From positions 3,107,501-3,171,500 of the forward strand of contig NZ_CP031416.1 in NCBI RefSeq assembly GCF_003367375.1: 64,000 bases of DNA, given 5' to 3'. The notes below the pieces were generated by a model. It searched no databases. It saw nothing but the letters and a program-made list of their open reading frames with translations, and was not told the DNA's origin. The stretch is from Gallaecimonas mangrovi (GTDB lineage Bacteria; Pseudomonadota; Gammaproteobacteria; Enterobacterales; Gallaecimonadaceae). The position numbers and the translations under genes are program-made. Every line of letters starts with the position of its first letter. Within the stretch, counting starts at the first letter, position 1. Below are positions 30,796 to 35,508 of this stretch, piece after piece.

Positions 30796-31318
30796 TTTGG
30801 CCGAACTCAAGGCCCTAGAAGACATTCACCGTAAACTGGCTGCCGGTTACCACTTGAGTGAAACCGAGCCGGGCCTGTGGCTGGAACTGAGCGCCCAACA
30901 TGACGCCTATGCCGCCCTTTTCGCCGCCCTTGGCTACCAATTGGTGCATGACGAACGTGGCTTTTTCTATTTCGACACACCGGAAACCTCGGTCAACATG
31001 TCGAAAACGTCCCAGTGGTTCGCCCTCACCCTGTATTGCCTGGTGGAAGACTACGCCGATGCCGGCAAGGATCCGGTCAACGCCCTGTTTGATAACGTTT
31101 TAGGGTTTAACGACATGGACGCGCTGGTCAGCCGCCACTTGCCGCTGTTTGAGCAGCTCAACGTGCAAAGCGCCTCTGATTTACGCAAAGAAGTCTTTAA
31201 CCGCATGGTGCGCCTGGGCTTTGCCCGGGAAGAAGCCGATGGTTTTAAGCTGTTGGCCCCTTGCCACCGTTTTCTAGACGCCGCCCTGGCCCTGACCGAG
31301 GAAAAAGTTGATGTCTGA
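30785..31318 (+). CDS. mksE: Condensin subunit MksE
   Basis: A 177-residue, mostly helical protein with winged-helix features (LEDIHRKLAAGYHLSE at the start, VFNRMVRLGFAREEADGF near residue 140). Size, position between mksF and mksB, and short overlaps on both sides identify it as the MksE (MukE-like) accessory subunit, which binds the kleisin and DNA. It overlaps mksB by 8 bases (ATGTCTGA). Confidence 0.8.
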   Translation: MQIDLAELKALEDIHRKLAAGYHLSETEPGLWLELSAQHDAYAALFAALGYQLVHDERGFFYFDTPETSVNMSKTSQWFALTLYCLVEDYADAGKDPVNALFDNVLGFNDMDALVSRHLPLFEQLNVQSASDLRKEVFNRMVRLGFAREEADGFKLLAPCHRFLDAALALTEEKVDV

Positions 31319-34127
31319 ACTTCGTTACGGCCTGACCAAGCTGGCACTGCTGAATACCGCAGGCTACGGCAAATGTGTGTTGCCGCTGGATAAATCGGTG
31401 TCGGTCTGCGCGCCGAACAACACCGGTAAATCGTCGGTGATCAACGCCCTGCAATTTCCGCTGATTAACGACATGCGGCTGACCGAGTGGGACGGCCACA
31501 GCTTTGAAGAAACCCGCAAATTTTATTTCTCTACCGACCGCTCATACGTGCTCTTAGAAGCCAGGTTGCCAGGGGATCGCGCCATGACCATTGGCGTGGC
31601 CGGCCGCGGCAAAGCCAGCGGTTATCAATATCAGTATTTTTGCTATGAAGGCCCTTTGGATTTGGGGGACTACATGGACGGTAAAACCATACTGCCCTAC
31701 GGCAAACTGATTGAGCGCCTGCACCAATACGGCCGTATTCCCCAGGAATTAAAAGCTTCTGAACTCAATGCCTTATTAACCGGTGGCGCCAGCCCGTACG
31801 ACCACCTGGCCATGAAGCTTATCCCGCTTAATAACGTCTCGGACGCACCGGTTTATAAAGAAATTTTCCGGCGGATGCTGAATCTGCATAAGCTCACCGC
31901 CCAAGACGTTAAAGGCTTTATGCTCAAGGTCTTTGACCGGCATTTTTCCAATGCCCGCATCGATTTCTTGGCGGTTTGGCACAATGCCTTTGACCGGGTA
32001 AACCGCATGCGCGCCCAGCTGTTGGCCATGGAAAAAGAAGGCGAAGCCATTAGCGCCCTGGAAAACCTGCTAGATAGCCGCGCCGTGCTAAAAGGCAAAC
32101 TGGCCGCCTACCAACCCAAGCTCGATGAAGCCTTGGTGCAATGGCATGACCACATGGAAGAAAAGCACCATGAGCTAACGTATAAGCGCGGCACCTTAAG
32201 CGAGGAAAAAGCCGGCCTTAAAGACAAGTTTGGCTTTTTGCAAAACCAAATGCTGGACCTAGGCGGCACCAAAACCAGCCTTGGCCAGTGGCTGGACGAA
32301 TACAATGCCCTTTACCAAGACTTTGCCCTGGTAGACGAGCCGACTCTTAAAGCCAACATCGACAGCCTCAAGGCCGAATACGAAGAGTTGGTAGGCCTGC
32401 TGGCATCAGCCAAGGCGCAGCCCATGTCGGCTATTGAGCGGCGCATCAAAGACCTTCGCCGCCAGCTCACCTCCAACAAGCTGCAATTTAAAAACCTCGA
32501 GTACAACCTCTATTCCAGGCTGCGCGAAGACTTGGCACCAGGGGAAATGGCCGAGGTCAGTAAACTGCTTAACCCCGACCTACTGGCGCTTTCTACCGCC
32601 AAGGGCGGCGAAGTTGCAATCACCGATGACGGTGCCTTCGGCGACTTCTTGGAAGCAGTGGCCGATGCCATCAAGGGCCAGCTGATGCAGCTGCCGGGGG
32701 CAACGGTCGATTTAAGCCATCTGCATTCGGCGCAGTTCTCCGCCAGTGAAGACAAACTGCAATTAAAAGAAACCATCGACCAGCAAGAAGCTGAGCTTCA
32801 GCAACTGAATGTTCAGCTAAAAGTGGCACAAGACTTAGAAGCCAAGCTGGCCGAAAAAAGTGCTCTTGAGCGGCAAGTGGAAGAAGAACAAGCCGCCCTG
32901 CGTGCCTTTAAACGCTTTCAGGAAATGCAGGCTCTTTATCCCGAGCGCCAAGCCCAGTTTGACACCCTGGCCGAAGAAGAAGCGGCCCTTCGCGAGCAGC
33001 TCGAAGAACTCAGGGCCATGGAAAGCCGCCTGAATGACCAGCTGATGCAGCTCAAGGTCACCGAAGAGCAATTCAAACGCCAAGGCGAAACCTTGAACCG
33101 GGTCAAAGGCCAGCGCATTGATGACCAGCTCGACCTTATCAGCGGCCGTGCCACGCCTTACATGATTGATATTCGCCTGGATATGGACGCGCTAAGTGAA
33201 AGCGTGGAGCACTTTAACCGCGAATGCCGGGAGCTGCGTGACCACGATTTAGGAATAACCAACACCTACATGCACCTTTTCAAGCAGGGTATTAGCCAGT
33301 TTGACGGTGAGCCAGACGAAGAAACCCGCTGCATGAAGCTCATTAACAGCTTCCATAACCTGCCGGCAGAGCGGGAAGTCATTGCCCGTCAGGCCCGCGC
33401 CGCACTGGTGGACGTGGCGGGGACGTTAAGCTCGCTGCGTGACGACTTGCACCGCTTGCATGGCGAAATGGACCGCTTTAACCAAGGCATTACCCGCCAC
33501 CCTATTTCCAACCTCAAAGGCTTTAAAATTGAGGTGGTCGACCGGCCGCAACTGGTGCAACACATCGACACCATACTGGAAACCTCAAAAACCTATGAAG
33601 CGGGCCAAAGCTTTGATTTACTGGATTTAAACCAGCCAAGCGACGACAAAGCCCTTAGCGAAGCCAAAGATTATCTGATTAAAGTGGGCACCGAAGCGGC
33701 CGGCCTGACCCTGGATGACCTTTTCGATATTCGCTTTAAAGTCACCGACCGCAGCGGCAACACCGACTCGTTCGATAAAATTGACTCAGCAGGCTCTAAC
33801 GGCACCCGGATCACCATTAAGCTGTTATGCGGCATGCTCTTTATCCGCCAACTGCTCAATGAAAAAGAGCGGGGCCTATACAGTATTCCGCTGTATATCG
33901 ACGAAGCGGCAGATATTGACCCGGCTAACCAGCGCGCCATTATCGACACCGCCCACCACTTTGGCTTTGTGCCGATTTTCGCCTCAGTAAAACCGCAGAT
34001 CTCCTGCGACATCGTGGTGCCCATTCGCACCACTCGCGATGGCACCGTCAACCTGGTGGAAGAAAAAGACTGGATTTTTGTTGAAGCCAAGGCCAGCGAT
34101 AACGAAACGGCCCTTGAAGAGGCCTGA
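31311..34127 (+). CDS. mksB: SMC-like condensin ATPase MksB
   Basis: A 938-residue SMC-type ATPase that compacts chromosomal DNA. It has an N-terminal head with Walker A CAPNNTGKSSVIN (residues 34-46), two coiled-coil arms (about 270-340 and 480-620) around a hinge, and a C-terminal head with GSNGTRITIKLL and Walker B LYIDEAADID. It is much shorter than MukB (about 1480) and of the size of Pseudomonas MksB; its first lines (RYGLTKLALLNTAGYG) recall those proteins. No MksG/JetD-like TOPRIM nuclease gene follows, so this is the chromosomal Mks type, not a plasmid-targeting Wadjet system. The ATG at 31311 is used. Confidence 0.88.
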   Translation: MSELRYGLTKLALLNTAGYGKCVLPLDKSVSVCAPNNTGKSSVINALQFPLINDMRLTEWDGHSFEETRKFYFSTDRSYVLLEARLPGDRAMTIGVAGRGKASGYQYQYFCYEGPLDLGDYMDGKTILPYGKLIERLHQYGRIPQELKASELNALLTGGASPYDHLAMKLIPLNNVSDAPVYKEIFRRMLNLHKLTAQDVKGFMLKVFDRHFSNARIDFLAVWHNAFDRVNRMRAQLLAMEKEGEAISALENLLDSRAVLKGKLAAYQPKLDEALVQWHDHMEEKHHELTYKRGTLSEEKAGLKDKFGFLQNQMLDLGGTKTSLGQWLDEYNALYQDFALVDEPTLKANIDSLKAEYEELVGLLASAKAQPMSAIERRIKDLRRQLTSNKLQFKNLEYNLYSRLREDLAPGEMAEVSKLLNPDLLALSTAKGGEVAITDDGAFGDFLEAVADAIKGQLMQLPGATVDLSHLHSAQFSASEDKLQLKETIDQQEAELQQLNVQLKVAQDLEAKLAEKSALERQVEEEQAALRAFKRFQEMQALYPERQAQFDTLAEEEAALREQLEELRAMESRLNDQLMQLKVTEEQFKRQGETLNRVKGQRIDDQLDLISGRATPYMIDIRLDMDALSESVEHFNRECRELRDHDLGITNTYMHLFKQGISQFDGEPDEETRCMKLINSFHNLPAEREVIARQARAALVDVAGTLSSLRDDLHRLHGEMDRFNQGITRHPISNLKGFKIEVVDRPQLVQHIDTILETSKTYEAGQSFDLLDLNQPSDDKALSEAKDYLIKVGTEAAGLTLDDLFDIRFKVTDRSGNTDSFDKIDSAGSNGTRITIKLLCGMLFIRQLLNEKERGLYSIPLYIDEAADIDPANQRAIIDTAHHFGFVPIFASVKPQISCDIVVPIRTTRDGTVNLVEEKDWIFVEAKASDNETALEEA

Positions 34128-34159
34128 GTAAAAAAGCCGCCCTATGGCGGCTTTTTTAC
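34128..34159. terminator. Bidirectional terminator, mksB and argD
   Basis: The arms GTAAAAAAGCCGCC and GGCGGCTTTTTTAC are a perfect 14-bp inverted repeat around CTAT. It ends both convergent genes. Confidence 0.9.
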
Positions 34160-35319
34160 TGATGAAACAATCCGTCCAATATGGCTAACGCCTCAGCGAT
34201 TTGCGCTTCGCTAATGTTAAGGGCGGGCATAAAACGCAGGGTGTTGGGGCGCGGCGCGTTAATCAGTAACCCCGCTGCCATGGCTTTTTCCACCAAAACA
34301 TTCGCGTTAACCTCGCCGGTATTTAGCGCCAGCAACAGGCCCTGACCACGCACTTCGCCAAGGCCGTATTTTTGGCTTAGCGCTTCTAGCCCCGCCCATA
34401 GCTGGCGGCTGCGCTCGTTCACCTCATCCAAAAAGCCCGGCGCTGTTACCGCGTTTAGCATCGCCAGGCCAACAGCGCACATCAGTGGATTGCCACTAAA
34501 GGTGCCGCCCTGGTCACCGTATTCAAAGCAGCTAATGGTTTTATCGATGAGCATCGCCGACAGCGGCACACCGCCGCCAAGACCTTTGGCCAGGGTCATG
34601 ATGTGCGGTTTGATGCCATGGTGCTGGTAGGCAAAGAGTTTGCCGGTGCGGCCAATGCCGGTTTGTACCTCGTCGACGATCAAAAGCAGGTTGTTCGCCT
34701 CACAAAGCTGCTGCAAACCGCGAAGAAAGGCAGCCGTTGCCGGTATAACTCCTGCCTCACCTTGAATAGGCTCTAGCATTACGGCAACGGTGGCATCATC
34801 AATGGCGGCCTTAACCGCCGCCAAGTCATTAAAAGGCACCTTGATGAAGCCCGGCACCTTGGGCTCGAACAGCTTTTCAAAAGCCGGTTTGCCGCACGCT
34901 GACATGGTGGCGAGGGTGCGGCCATGAAAGCCGCCTTCAAAGGTAATGATTTTAAAGGCGCCCTTTTTGTGTTTTTCACCCCAGCGCCGGGCCAGCTTAA
35001 TGGCCCCTTCGTTGGCCTCGGCGCCACTGGAGGCAAAGAACACTTGGTCGAATACTGAGTGCGCCACCAAGGTATTGGCAAGTTTTAGCAACGGCTCGTT
35101 ATAAAAGCCGGGGCTGGCGTTAACCAGGGTTGCCGCTTGCTCGGCCAGCGCCTGTTGCATCACCGCCGGGCAATGGCCAAGGGTATTGACCGCCCAGCCC
35201 TGGATAAGGTCCAAGTAGCTTTGGCCCTGGCTGTCAAAAAGGTAGCTTCCCTGGCCTTTCACAAAAAGCTGCTTGGGCTTTTTGGCAACAGGAATAAGCG
35301 CTGCAAAATCACGGTGCAT
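34156..35319 (-). CDS. argD: Acetylornithine aminotransferase
   Basis: A 387-residue class III PLP aminotransferase. It contains [36 protein letters not shown], the [12 protein letters not shown] motif, the PLP lysine in TLAKGLGGG, and [12 protein letters not shown]. It resembles the acetylornithine transaminase type of beta-proteobacteria and Xanthomonas ([13 protein letters not shown]) more than E. coli ArgD. AGGAGG lies 7 bases before the ATG at 35319. The leader upstream (see the separate entries) carries an arginine-rich mini-frame, a terminator and an ArgR-box match, which independently supports an arginine-pathway role. It would act in step 4 of arginine synthesis, and perhaps in lysine synthesis. 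Confidence 0.88.
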
Positions 35320-35337
35320 TTCATTGCCTCCTGGCAA

Positions 35338-35365
35338 TAAAAAACCGCAGCAACGGCTGCGGTTT
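35338..35365 (-). terminator. Attenuator terminator in the argD leader
   Basis: Read on the minus strand, AAACCGCAGC and GCTGCGGTTT pair around CGTT. Six U then A-U-U follow, ending just before the argD AGGAGG. It is a textbook intrinsic terminator lying upstream of the gene it would silence. Its upstream arm (35356-35364) can pair instead with the leader sequence at 35386-35394, which would prevent termination. Confidence 0.85.
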
Positions 35366-35377
35366 GGTCAGTAACAG

Positions 35378-35421
35378 ACAGCCTTAACCGCAGCGCCGCA
35401 AGCGGCGTCGGTTAAGGCTGT
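35378..35421 (-). promoter_or_regulatory. Protector (1:2) hairpin and antiterminator segment of the argD attenuator
   Basis: The 13-base arms at 35409-35421 and 35378-35390 are perfect inverted repeats (ACAGCCTTAACCG on the minus strand). Between them is a second 6-bp stem, CGCCGC/GCGGCG (35394-35399 with 35402-35407). Part of the downstream arm (GCTGCGGTT, 35386-35394) is also exactly complementary to the terminator's upstream arm. The 1:2, 2:3 and 3:4 pairings are therefore mutually exclusive. Confidence 0.85.
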
Positions 35422-35449
35422 GGCTACACATAACGGGTGCGATATTCAT
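35384..35449 (-). CDS. Arginine-rich leader peptide of argD (ArgL-like)
   Basis: A 21-codon frame (ATG at 35449, stop at 35384-35386) too short for routine gene callers. Its C-terminal part reads NRRRLRRCG, so five of six consecutive codons (CGA CGC CGC TTG CGG CGC) are arginine. These codons lie inside the first arm and loop of the protector hairpin. A GGA sits 5 bases before the ATG, giving a weak ribosome site. A ribosome slowed by lack of charged tRNA-Arg would hold the hairpin open and allow the antiterminator. A ribosome reaching the stop would cover the antiterminator segment and let the terminator form. Inference from sequence; not shown here. Confidence 0.75.
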   Translation of the reverse strand: MNIAPVMCSHSLNRRRLRRCG

Positions 35450-35473
35450 AGCGTTCCATCATTAACTCGAAAG

Positions 35474-35508
35474 AATATAAAATCAATATATTCAAATAAA
35501 AATTCATA
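35474..35508 (-). promoter_or_regulatory. argD promoter with an ArgR-box match
   Basis: On the minus strand TATATT (35474-35479) is a good -10 box, with a poor -35 (TTTTTA, 35497-35502) 17 bases upstream. The 18-base stretch 35491-35508 fits the E. coli ARG-box pattern wNTGAATwwwwATTCANw at all but two positions. The box covers the -35, so an arginine repressor bound here would block RNA polymerase. Predicted start of transcription is about 15-20 bases before the leader ATG. Confidence 0.55.

What the first reader, a model, noticed from the sequence alone, without database searches (positions are those of the whole stretch)
35338..35449. Arginine-responsive transcription attenuator in front of argD
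Seen: a 21-codon leader frame on the minus strand with five arginine codons in six, inside the first arm of a protector hairpin (13+6 bp). Its downstream segment GCTGCGGTT is exactly complementary to the upstream arm of a U6 terminator placed right before the argD ribosome site. The three pairings exclude each other. Known: trp, his, leu, phe, ilv and thr operons use this design in proteobacteria. Inference: a ribosome stalled at the Arg codons frees the 2:3 pairing and turns argD on. I know of no well-described arginine version for arg biosynthesis genes, so this may be new.
Basis: partly seen in the sequence, partly recalled or inferred. Interest (0 to 1): 0.9.

Follow-up and report, generated by a model that had tools for sequence, protein, structure and literature searches.

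The report
Arginine-sensing attenuator before argD
A short arginine-rich leader peptide and three competing RNA hairpins in front of an arginine-making gene appear to switch that gene on when arginine runs low, and the same design recurs in distantly related bacteria.

Summary
Window 35449-35339 (minus strand) carries leader peptide MNIAPVMCSHSLNRRRLRRCG, a protector hairpin, an exact 9-nt antiterminator match and a U-run terminator, just before an NF002985-type acetylornithine transaminase gene. Relatives decide it. Of 98 upstreams of such argD genes, mostly from Proteobacteria, 59 have a detected terminator; 47 of these 59 also have an ORF with at least 3 Arg in 6 codons (13.5 expected from shuffles). 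Antiterminator segments covary. A promoter typically ends 5-9 nt before the leader ATG, so the leader mRNA is probably leaderless. The first tandem Arg run uses CGA, CGC or CGU in 88 of 89 codons, CGA first in 27 of 31 clusters. Rfam's orphan sRNA BcKCsr7 overlies this leader in 3 of 20 relatives scanned. ArgR was not found in 25 of 25 tested argD-carrying genomes outside the window's genus; in that genus it is present and paired ARG boxes overlap the promoter. My searches found no arginine attenuator of arginine synthesis in print. No expression data were available for the window.

The parts
35470..35508 (-). paired ARG boxes (predicted ArgR operator), 18 bp each, 21 bp apart, overlapping the -35
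   Evidence: two-box score 28 of 32; highest in 64 kb on both strands (next best 22); 0 of 500 shuffles reach it (consensus recalled)
35481..35486 (-). -35 element TTGATT (predicted)
   Evidence: 17 nt from the -10; aligned positions read TTGATT in L009 and TTGACT in L010. Not listed by the generic scan, whose threshold is 9 of 12
35458..35463 (-). -10 element AATGAT (predicted), 8 nt before the leader ATG
   Evidence: window is in the set with at least 8 of 12 matches in register with an in-frame leader ATG; pattern general in relatives
35384..35449 (-). leader peptide ORF, 21 codons plus stop
   Evidence: family-wide enrichment of Arg-run ORFs
35393..35410 (-). Arg codon run CGA CGC CGC TTG CGG CGC (RRRLRR)
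   Evidence: CGA-first bias across clusters
35378..35421 (-). protector hairpin 1:2
   Evidence: -30.4 kcal/mol, 13+5 bp; 1:2 z -5.1, p 0.002
35386..35394 (-). segment 2, GCTGCGGTT (antiterminator strand)
   Evidence: exact reverse complement of segment 3; window alone p 0.065 against shuffles
35356..35364 (-). segment 3, AACCGCAGC (antiterminator partner and 5' arm of terminator)
   Evidence: 2:3 pairing covaries across the family
35339..35365 (-). intrinsic terminator 3:4, stem AAACCGCAGC/GCTGCGGTTT and U run
   Evidence: -16.0 kcal/mol, z -4.7; found by pattern scan
35327..35332 (-). argD ribosome-binding site AGGAGG
   Evidence: read directly from sequence
34156..35319 (-). argD, acetylornithine transaminase, NCBIfam NF002985 (PRK03715)
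   Evidence: 583.9 bits against curated cut-off 568; Pfam Aminotran_3

Best explanation
This is a ribosome-mediated transcription attenuator for arginine. RNA polymerase starts at or next to the A of the leader AUG, so the leader peptide is translated from a leaderless mRNA. With enough charged tRNA-Arg the ribosome runs through the CGA CGC CGC run, reaches the UAA and covers segment 2; the terminator 3:4 forms and a short leader RNA is released. When arginine is low the ribosome waits at the Arg run, first at the CGA codon; segment 2 stays free, pairs with segment 3 before segment 4 is made, and argD is transcribed. In the window's genus ArgR probably adds repression at initiation, through paired ARG boxes over the promoter, much as TrpR and attenuation share the E. 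coli trp operon (established knowledge). Shown: sequence anatomy, conservation, covariation, promoter register, codon bias. Inferred: the transcription start, translation of the leader, stalling, termination, arginine response.
For: Arg-run ORFs upstream of terminators: 47 of 59 against 13.5 expected; tandem RR in 53 of 59. The 2:3 complementarity beats shuffles (33 clusters, mean z -1.66, 12 of 33 p<0.05, Fisher p 2.6e-12) and own pairs beat swapped pairs (sum -619.9 against -511.5 +/- 16.9; 26 of 33 better than expected; p 5e-5). Co-transcriptional fold: segment 3 sequestered with ribosome at the first Arg codon, mean 0.73 against 0.55 for shuffles (31 clusters, Fisher 2.9e-8), and 0.31 with ribosome at stop; window 0.85 against 0.27. 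Window ribosome mask: terminator probability about 0.1 with codon 14 (CGA) in the A-site and at least 0.94 from codon 16. Promoter in register with the leader ATG: mean 8.11 of 12 against null 4.92; 45 of 61 with p<0.05. Terminator plus RR leader plus in-register promoter: 49 of 98 argD upstreams, 1 of 82 neighbouring-gene upstreams, 1 of 73 argG/argF/argB upstreams, 0 of 5 upstreams of the genus's second transaminase, same rule. In 65 of 65 genomes of genus g338 the leader matches and the ORF with its Arg run is kept, four Arg codons in 63 and three in 2. A B. cenocepacia RNA equated with Bc_KC_sr7 is listed as expressed, 147 nt by its coordinates (PMC10987360); leader ATG to U-run end in the 65 genomes is 139-161 nt, mode 150.
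Against: No RNA, ribosome-profiling or reporter data were seen for the window. Alone, the window's 2:3 pairing does not reach significance against shuffles (p 0.065; 0.06). In the window's own genus only 3 of 5 genomes have this argD; of those L010 has lost the ATG and part of the Arg run while keeping terminator and promoter, and L009 keeps RR plus single Arg codons. 39 of 98 upstreams have no detected terminator, and several lineages have neither terminator nor such a leader. At thermodynamic equilibrium the terminator wins in most leaders even with a stalled ribosome: 5 of 53 switch at Arg1, 8 of 53 within Arg1-3, so the model needs kinetic trapping. The window's prediction for codon 15 depends on one nucleotide of assumed footprint (0.61, 0.09). 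Protector 1:2 pairing is less well supported (8 of 33 clusters p<0.05). The comparison of Arg1 with stop is partly trivial because more RNA is free; the shuffle control is the fair one. GC-rich genomes give Arg-run ORFs by chance: 31 of 98 on the reverse strand.
Confidence: 0.87

Rival explanations
1. The leader peptide is an arrest peptide: the nascent chain, perhaps with arginine or ornithine, stalls the ribosome (as in fungal AAP or SpeFL), rather than starved Arg codons.
For: Arg-codon leader ORFs sensing this pathway are known: Salmonella speF orf34 (PMC6386406, passages). Peptide context is not fully free here: Leu precedes the Arg run in 14 of 31 clusters, which could be a nascent-chain feature or common descent.
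Against: No other residue around the run is shared by more than 7 of 31 clusters. Codon identity, not only the amino acid, is conserved (CGA first in 27 of 31). Arrest by high arginine would predict the opposite sign.
Confidence: 0.08
2. Control is by ArgR alone; the terminator and hairpin set a fixed basal read-through and the Arg run is decoration.
For: ArgR gene in 5 of 5 genomes of the genus; paired ARG boxes at the promoter in all 3 genomes with this argD; L010 keeps promoter and terminator without the leader peptide.
Against: ArgR (PF01316) found in 0 of 25 other argD carriers tested, while the family keeps leader, promoter register and alternative pairings. May still be true for L010.
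Confidence: 0.05
3. The terminated leader RNA is mainly a trans-acting sRNA (as filed for BcKCsr7), cis attenuation being secondary.
For: RF02884 is filed as an sRNA and hits L055, L056, L058 at the leader; S. meliloti rnTrpL, a leaderless trp attenuator RNA, is described as a dual-function sRNA (PMC10117765, passages).
Against: The conserved features are those of attenuation and lie directly before argD; no trans target was examined here. The two roles are compatible.
Confidence: 0.08
4. Chance: a GC-rich inverted repeat and an Arg-rich frame in front of an ordinary terminator.
For: CGN-rich ORFs are common in GC-rich DNA.
Confidence: 0.02

Closest known systems
Ribosome-mediated amino-acid attenuators of Proteobacteria (trp, his, leu, ilv, thr, phe leaders; recalled)
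   Same: Leader ORF with tandem codons of the pathway product, three mutually exclusive pairings, intrinsic terminator before the biosynthetic gene.
   Different: Arginine specificity at argD; no Rfam family covers the window; of four arg genes looked at, only argD has it.
Sinorhizobium meliloti trpL / rnTrpL
   Same: Leader mRNA begins with the AUG of the leader peptide; the terminated RNA is an sRNA (PMC10117765, passages).
   Different: Tryptophan. Here the layout is predicted, not mapped, but recurs in alpha, beta and gamma lineages.
Salmonella speF orf34 (SpeFL)
   Same: Upstream ORF with consecutive Arg codons sensing arginine (PMC6386406, passages).
   Different: Controls ornithine decarboxylase through Rho, RBS folding and RNase G, not an intrinsic-terminator switch on arginine synthesis.
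S. aureus rbfL
   Same: uORF with Arg codons senses arginine via tRNA-Arg charging (PMC13009471, passages).
   Different: Acts on translation initiation of rbf; AGA/AGG codons.
Pseudomonas carA leader
   Same: Leader of a gene serving arginine synthesis, with attenuation proposed and a leader peptide reported in P. aeruginosa (PMC4997734, passages).
   Different: The attenuation is attributed to pyrimidines, arginine acting at the transcriptional level otherwise.
Arginine T-boxes
   Same: RNA-level arginine control by uncharged tRNA; mentioned for other species in PMC1262725 (passage).
   Different: tRNA binds the RNA directly; no leader peptide (established knowledge). That paper saw no conserved RNA element before arginine operons of Actinobacteria.
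Rfam RF02884 BcKCsr7
   Same: Overlies the argD leader in L055, L056, L058.
   Different: Filed as an orphan sRNA; neither of two reviews contains 'argD' or 'leader peptide' (term searches and passages).

Membership tests
Ribosome-mediated transcription attenuator | short leader ORF with run of codons for the pathway's end product | tested here: met
Ribosome-mediated transcription attenuator | regulated gene makes that amino acid | tested here: met
   NF002985 acetylornithine transaminase above curated cut-off; activity not tested
Ribosome-mediated transcription attenuator | intrinsic terminator between leader ORF and gene | tested here: met
   window; 59 of 98 in the family by my detector
Ribosome-mediated transcription attenuator | mutually exclusive 1:2, 2:3, 3:4 pairings with covariation | tested here: met
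   2:3 strongly in the family, 1:2 more weakly; co-transcriptional folds; equilibrium folds mostly do not switch
Ribosome-mediated transcription attenuator | leader translated and stall at the regulatory codons raises read-through | not testable with these tools
   needs ribosome profiling or reporters
ArgR regulon | paired ARG boxes about 21 bp apart over the promoter, and argR in the genome | tested here: met
   (consensus and spacing recalled, not from a call); PF01316 in G000
ArgR regulon | ArgR binding | not testable with these tools
   needs footprinting
Rfam RF02884 BcKCsr7 | gathering-score match | tested here: not met
   window has no Rfam match; 3 of 20 relative loci match
Arrest peptide (AAP/SpeFL type) | conserved peptide residues beyond Arg | tested here: inconclusive
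   Leu before the run in 14 of 31 clusters; no other flanking residue in more than 7 of 31

The most novel reading that the evidence does not exclude
A leaderless arginine attenuator spread over alpha-, beta- and gammaproteobacteria reads the charging of one isoacceptor, tRNA-Arg(ICG), through CGA/CGC/CGU codons with the slow CGA first, and is a main arginine sensor of the pathway where ArgR is missing; the orphan Burkholderia sRNA BcKCsr7 is its terminated product.
Probability: 0.5. Interest if true: 0.85.

Novelty: new member of a known kind. Interest (0 to 1): 0.74.

Why it matters
Classic attenuators are textbook for Trp, His, Leu, Ile/Val, Thr and Phe, but my searches found none in print for arginine synthesis. 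This one is widespread, gives Proteobacteria in which no ArgR was found (Burkholderia-type, Bradyrhizobium-type) a plausible arginine sensor, offers a function for an orphan Rfam sRNA, and is a natural test of codon choice: CGA is 34 of 89 Arg codons in the first leader runs but 18 of 623 in argD itself. The idea that starvation sensing hinges on the slowest codon of one isoacceptor becomes directly testable by synonymous recoding.

Tried and rejected
Equilibrium folding as a test of switching: rejected as a family-wide test because the terminator is more stable than the antiterminator in most leaders; replaced by folds without segment 4. Both are reported.

Other arg genes for the same device: argG 0 of 24, argF 1 of 24 (L220, no visible relation to the argD leaders), argB 0 of 25 (repeated over all in-frame starts up to 60 codons upstream, because many argB starts had not been resolved; same counts). 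argA, argC, argH, argJ and carAB were not tested.

First control on neighbouring genes was flawed: 108 upstreams with 3 hits, 2 of them argD itself, and a slightly stricter rule than for argD. One search replaces it with one rule for both: 1 of 82.

The second aminotransferase of the genus (L002 and L011-L014; L002 is AstC/PRK05093 type, the others inferred) has no such leader in 5 of 5; its best two-box ARG score is 21.

Locating the B. cenocepacia J2315 coordinate in a held genome, to compare the mapped 5' end with the leader ATG: no genome had the match at that place; the length comparison is a weaker substitute.

No structure prediction or covariance model was made; the protein is an ordinary transaminase and the leaders are too divergent for one alignment. 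That the codon bias is a by-product of hairpin sequence was not excluded. The generic promoter scan did not list the leader promoter and the Rfam scan of the window found nothing. No tRNA gene in the window.

Full report
What is in the window. On the minus strand, 35449-35384 encodes MNIAPVMCSHSLNRRRLRRCG*. Around and after it lie a protector hairpin (35421-35378, -30.4 kcal/mol), segment 2 GCTGCGGTT (35394-35386), segment 3 AACCGCAGC (35364-35356) and a terminator (35365-35339, -16.0 kcal/mol), then AGGAGG and argD at 35319. The leader folds better than all 200 shuffles. The gene is acetylornithine transaminase of NCBIfam NF002985, 583.9 bits over a cut-off of 568. No Rfam family matches the window. 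The divergent gene on the plus strand encodes a patatin-like phospholipase.

The comparison set. I gathered 98 upstream regions of argD genes found with the window protein or NF002985: 3 of the window's genus including the window; 32 of the 33 loci (L047, a C-terminal fragment, dropped); 7; 29; 24; 3. Most are from Proteobacteria; one search also brought Rokubacteria MAGs and one Spirochaetes MAG. Thresholds were E 1e-125 and 1e-140. In the sampled genomes the family is patchy: 8 of 369 in the class (protein query), 34 of 397 in the phylum, 29 of 200 in the order of G651, 3 of 241 in the class of G399. Five argD starts were corrected by hand (L019, L023, L033, L034, L108), the start of L082 stayed unresolved, and one leader ORF was chosen by hand (L085).

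Leader peptides. My terminator detector finds a U-run hairpin within about 200 nt in 59 of 98. Of these 59, 47 have an ATG ORF of 8-60 codons with at least 3 Arg in 6 codons before the terminator, 13.5 being expected from dinucleotide shuffles; 53 of 59 have at least RR and 34 of 59 RRR. Of the 39 without a detected terminator, 21 have such an ORF against 9.9 expected; eight of them (L017, L023, L031, L041, L044, L067, L068, L073) look by eye like the same leaders with a hairpin but too weak a U run for the detector. In a first count before the start corrections, Arg reached the threshold in 66 of 98, the next amino acid (Ala) in 31, and Arg on the reverse strand in 31. Other lineages have neither terminator nor a leader of this kind, for example the Rokubacteria loci and L060-L062. 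Leu precedes the first Arg run in 14 of 31 clusters; no other flanking residue exceeds 7 of 31.

Pairings. For the 53 leaders with terminator and RR (33 clusters at 72% identity), complementarity of the region after the Arg run with the terminator's 5' arm exceeds shuffles (clusters: mean z -1.66, 12 of 33 p<0.05, Fisher 2.6e-12). Exchanging partners between leaders weakens it (own sum -619.9, permuted -511.5 +/- 16.9, p 5e-5; 26 of 33 better than the additive expectation), which is covariation. The protector is weaker (mean z -0.99, 8 of 33 p<0.05). The window alone gives p 0.065 for 2:3 and 0.002 for 1:2. With segment 4 not yet made and a ribosome assumed to cover 13 nt from the first base of the A-site codon, standing at the first Arg codon, segment 3 is sequestered with mean probability 0.73 in 31 clusters (L030 and L048, whose ORFs look accidental, dropped), shuffles 0.55; at the stop codon 0.31. 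The window gives 0.85 and 0.27, p 0.06 against its own shuffles. At equilibrium most leaders keep the terminator: 5 of 53 switch at Arg1, 8 of 53 within Arg1-3. The window leader is one that switches even at equilibrium: terminator probability about 0.1 with codon 14 (CGA) in the A-site and 0.94-0.97 from codon 16; codon 15 gives 0.61 with a 14-nt and 0.09 with a 13-nt footprint.

Leaderless layout. Scoring TTGACA-(16-18)-TATAAT ending 5-9 nt before the leader ATG, with the in-frame ATG nearest to but at least three codons before the Arg run taken blindly, 61 leaders (the 53 plus the 8 above) average 8.11 of 12 against 4.92 at other positions; 45 of 61 have p<0.05; 22 of 33 clusters, Fisher 1.4e-26. 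In several misses the blind rule took a second ATG and a promoter fits the first, as in the window (TTGATT-17-AATGAT-8-ATG). The base before the ATG is C in 73% of clusters. A start at or beside the A of the ATG is therefore likely, but unmapped. S. meliloti rnTrpL is a known leaderless leader mRNA (PMC10117765, passages).

Codons. In the first tandem run of 31 clusters the Arg codons are CGA 34, CGC 33, CGU 21, CGG 1, AGA/AGG 0; CGA is first in 27 of 31. In the argD genes of the clusters they are CGC 313, CGG 117, CGU 114, AGG 33, AGA 28, CGA 18 (Fisher p 3e-21 for CGA, 5e-11 for CGA/CGC/CGU together). That CGA, CGC and CGU share tRNA-Arg(ICG) is established knowledge; in Salmonella's his leader, Arg pairs with CGA de-attenuated strongly and CGU/CGC were read faster than CGA (PMC4046918, passages). 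The first codon being the one whose stall breaks the terminator in the window fits.

Controls. Terminator plus RR leader plus in-register promoter (at least 8 of 12) occurs in 49 of 98 argD upstreams. By the same rule it occurs in 1 of 82 upstreams of neighbouring genes from the same loci, in 1 of 73 argG, argF and argB upstreams from 25 genomes (0 of 24, 1 of 24, 0 of 25), and in 0 of 5 upstreams of the genus's second transaminase.

Burkholderia-type genomes and the orphan sRNA. The L055 leader is found in 65 of 65 genomes of that genus and all 65 keep the leader ORF; 63 have CGA CGU CGC CGC and 2 have three Arg codons, an in-frame difference. Rfam RF02884, BcKCsr7, hits L055 (1293-1459; leader ATG at 1307), L056 and L058, 3 of 20 loci scanned. 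A review lists Bc_KC_sr7 = RIT34 = nc5U30 at J2315 chromosome 1, 2,967,641-2,967,787 (147 nt), expressed (PMC10987360, passages); a second review reports expression of Bc_KC_sr1-7 as confirmed (PMC6321483, passages). The primary paper is not held. ATG to U-run end in the 65 genomes is 139-161 nt, mode 150. The link of that RNA to argD is mine.

ArgR. PF01316 is present in 5 of 5 genomes of the window's genus and was not found in 25 of 25 other genomes tested that carry this argD; some are MAGs, and AraC-type regulators were not tested. At the window's argD promoter two ARG boxes 21 bp apart score 28 of 32, the best in 64 kb, next 22; L009 and L010 score 27. So in this genus repression and attenuation probably act together.

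Against. L010, one of three genus members with this argD, has ACG for ATG and a deletion in the Arg run, but keeps promoter, ARG boxes and terminator. L009 has RR and two single Arg codons. No expression evidence was seen for the window.

Novelty. Full-text searches (listings with abstract starts) gave no arginine attenuator of an arg biosynthesis gene. Term searches inside Naville and Gautheret 2010 and the B. cenocepacia and Bradyrhizobium start-site papers found neither argD nor arginine in the main text. A study of Shewanella cis-regulatory RNAs names leader-peptide attenuators for several amino acids; arginine occurs once, for speA. The library lacks most subscription journals, and supplements were not read.

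Noticed in passing
L055 1293-1459, L056 2757-2908, L058 1282-1435: Rfam orphan sRNA BcKCsr7 (RF02884) overlies the argD leader; the family could be re-annotated as an arginine attenuator.
   Followed up: yes
L010 (G004:C12) upstream of argD: Close relative has lost the leader start codon and part of the Arg run but keeps promoter, ARG boxes and terminator: a natural loss of the leader peptide.
   Followed up: partly
window 31308-34127 (+): 939-aa protein convergent to argD; weak hits to the MukB-like LmuB/JetC models of PADLOC (best E 8e-8) and none in Pfam; perhaps an SMC-type ATPase of an anti-plasmid or condensin-like system.
   Followed up: no
G001, G003 (window's genus): These genomes show only a transaminase about 45% identical to the window's, so the attenuated argD is patchy within the genus.
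   Followed up: no
argD leaders, 31 clusters: Leu stands directly before the first Arg run in 14 of 31 clusters, with several different Leu codons; common descent or a nascent-chain effect is open.
   Followed up: partly
L036-L040, upstream of argD: In Rokubacteria the DNA before argD encodes what looks by eye like the end of an N-acetyltransferase, with no attenuator.
   Followed up: no
L098 (G878:C458): argD match contains one in-frame TAG; draft error or decayed copy not examined.
   Followed up: no
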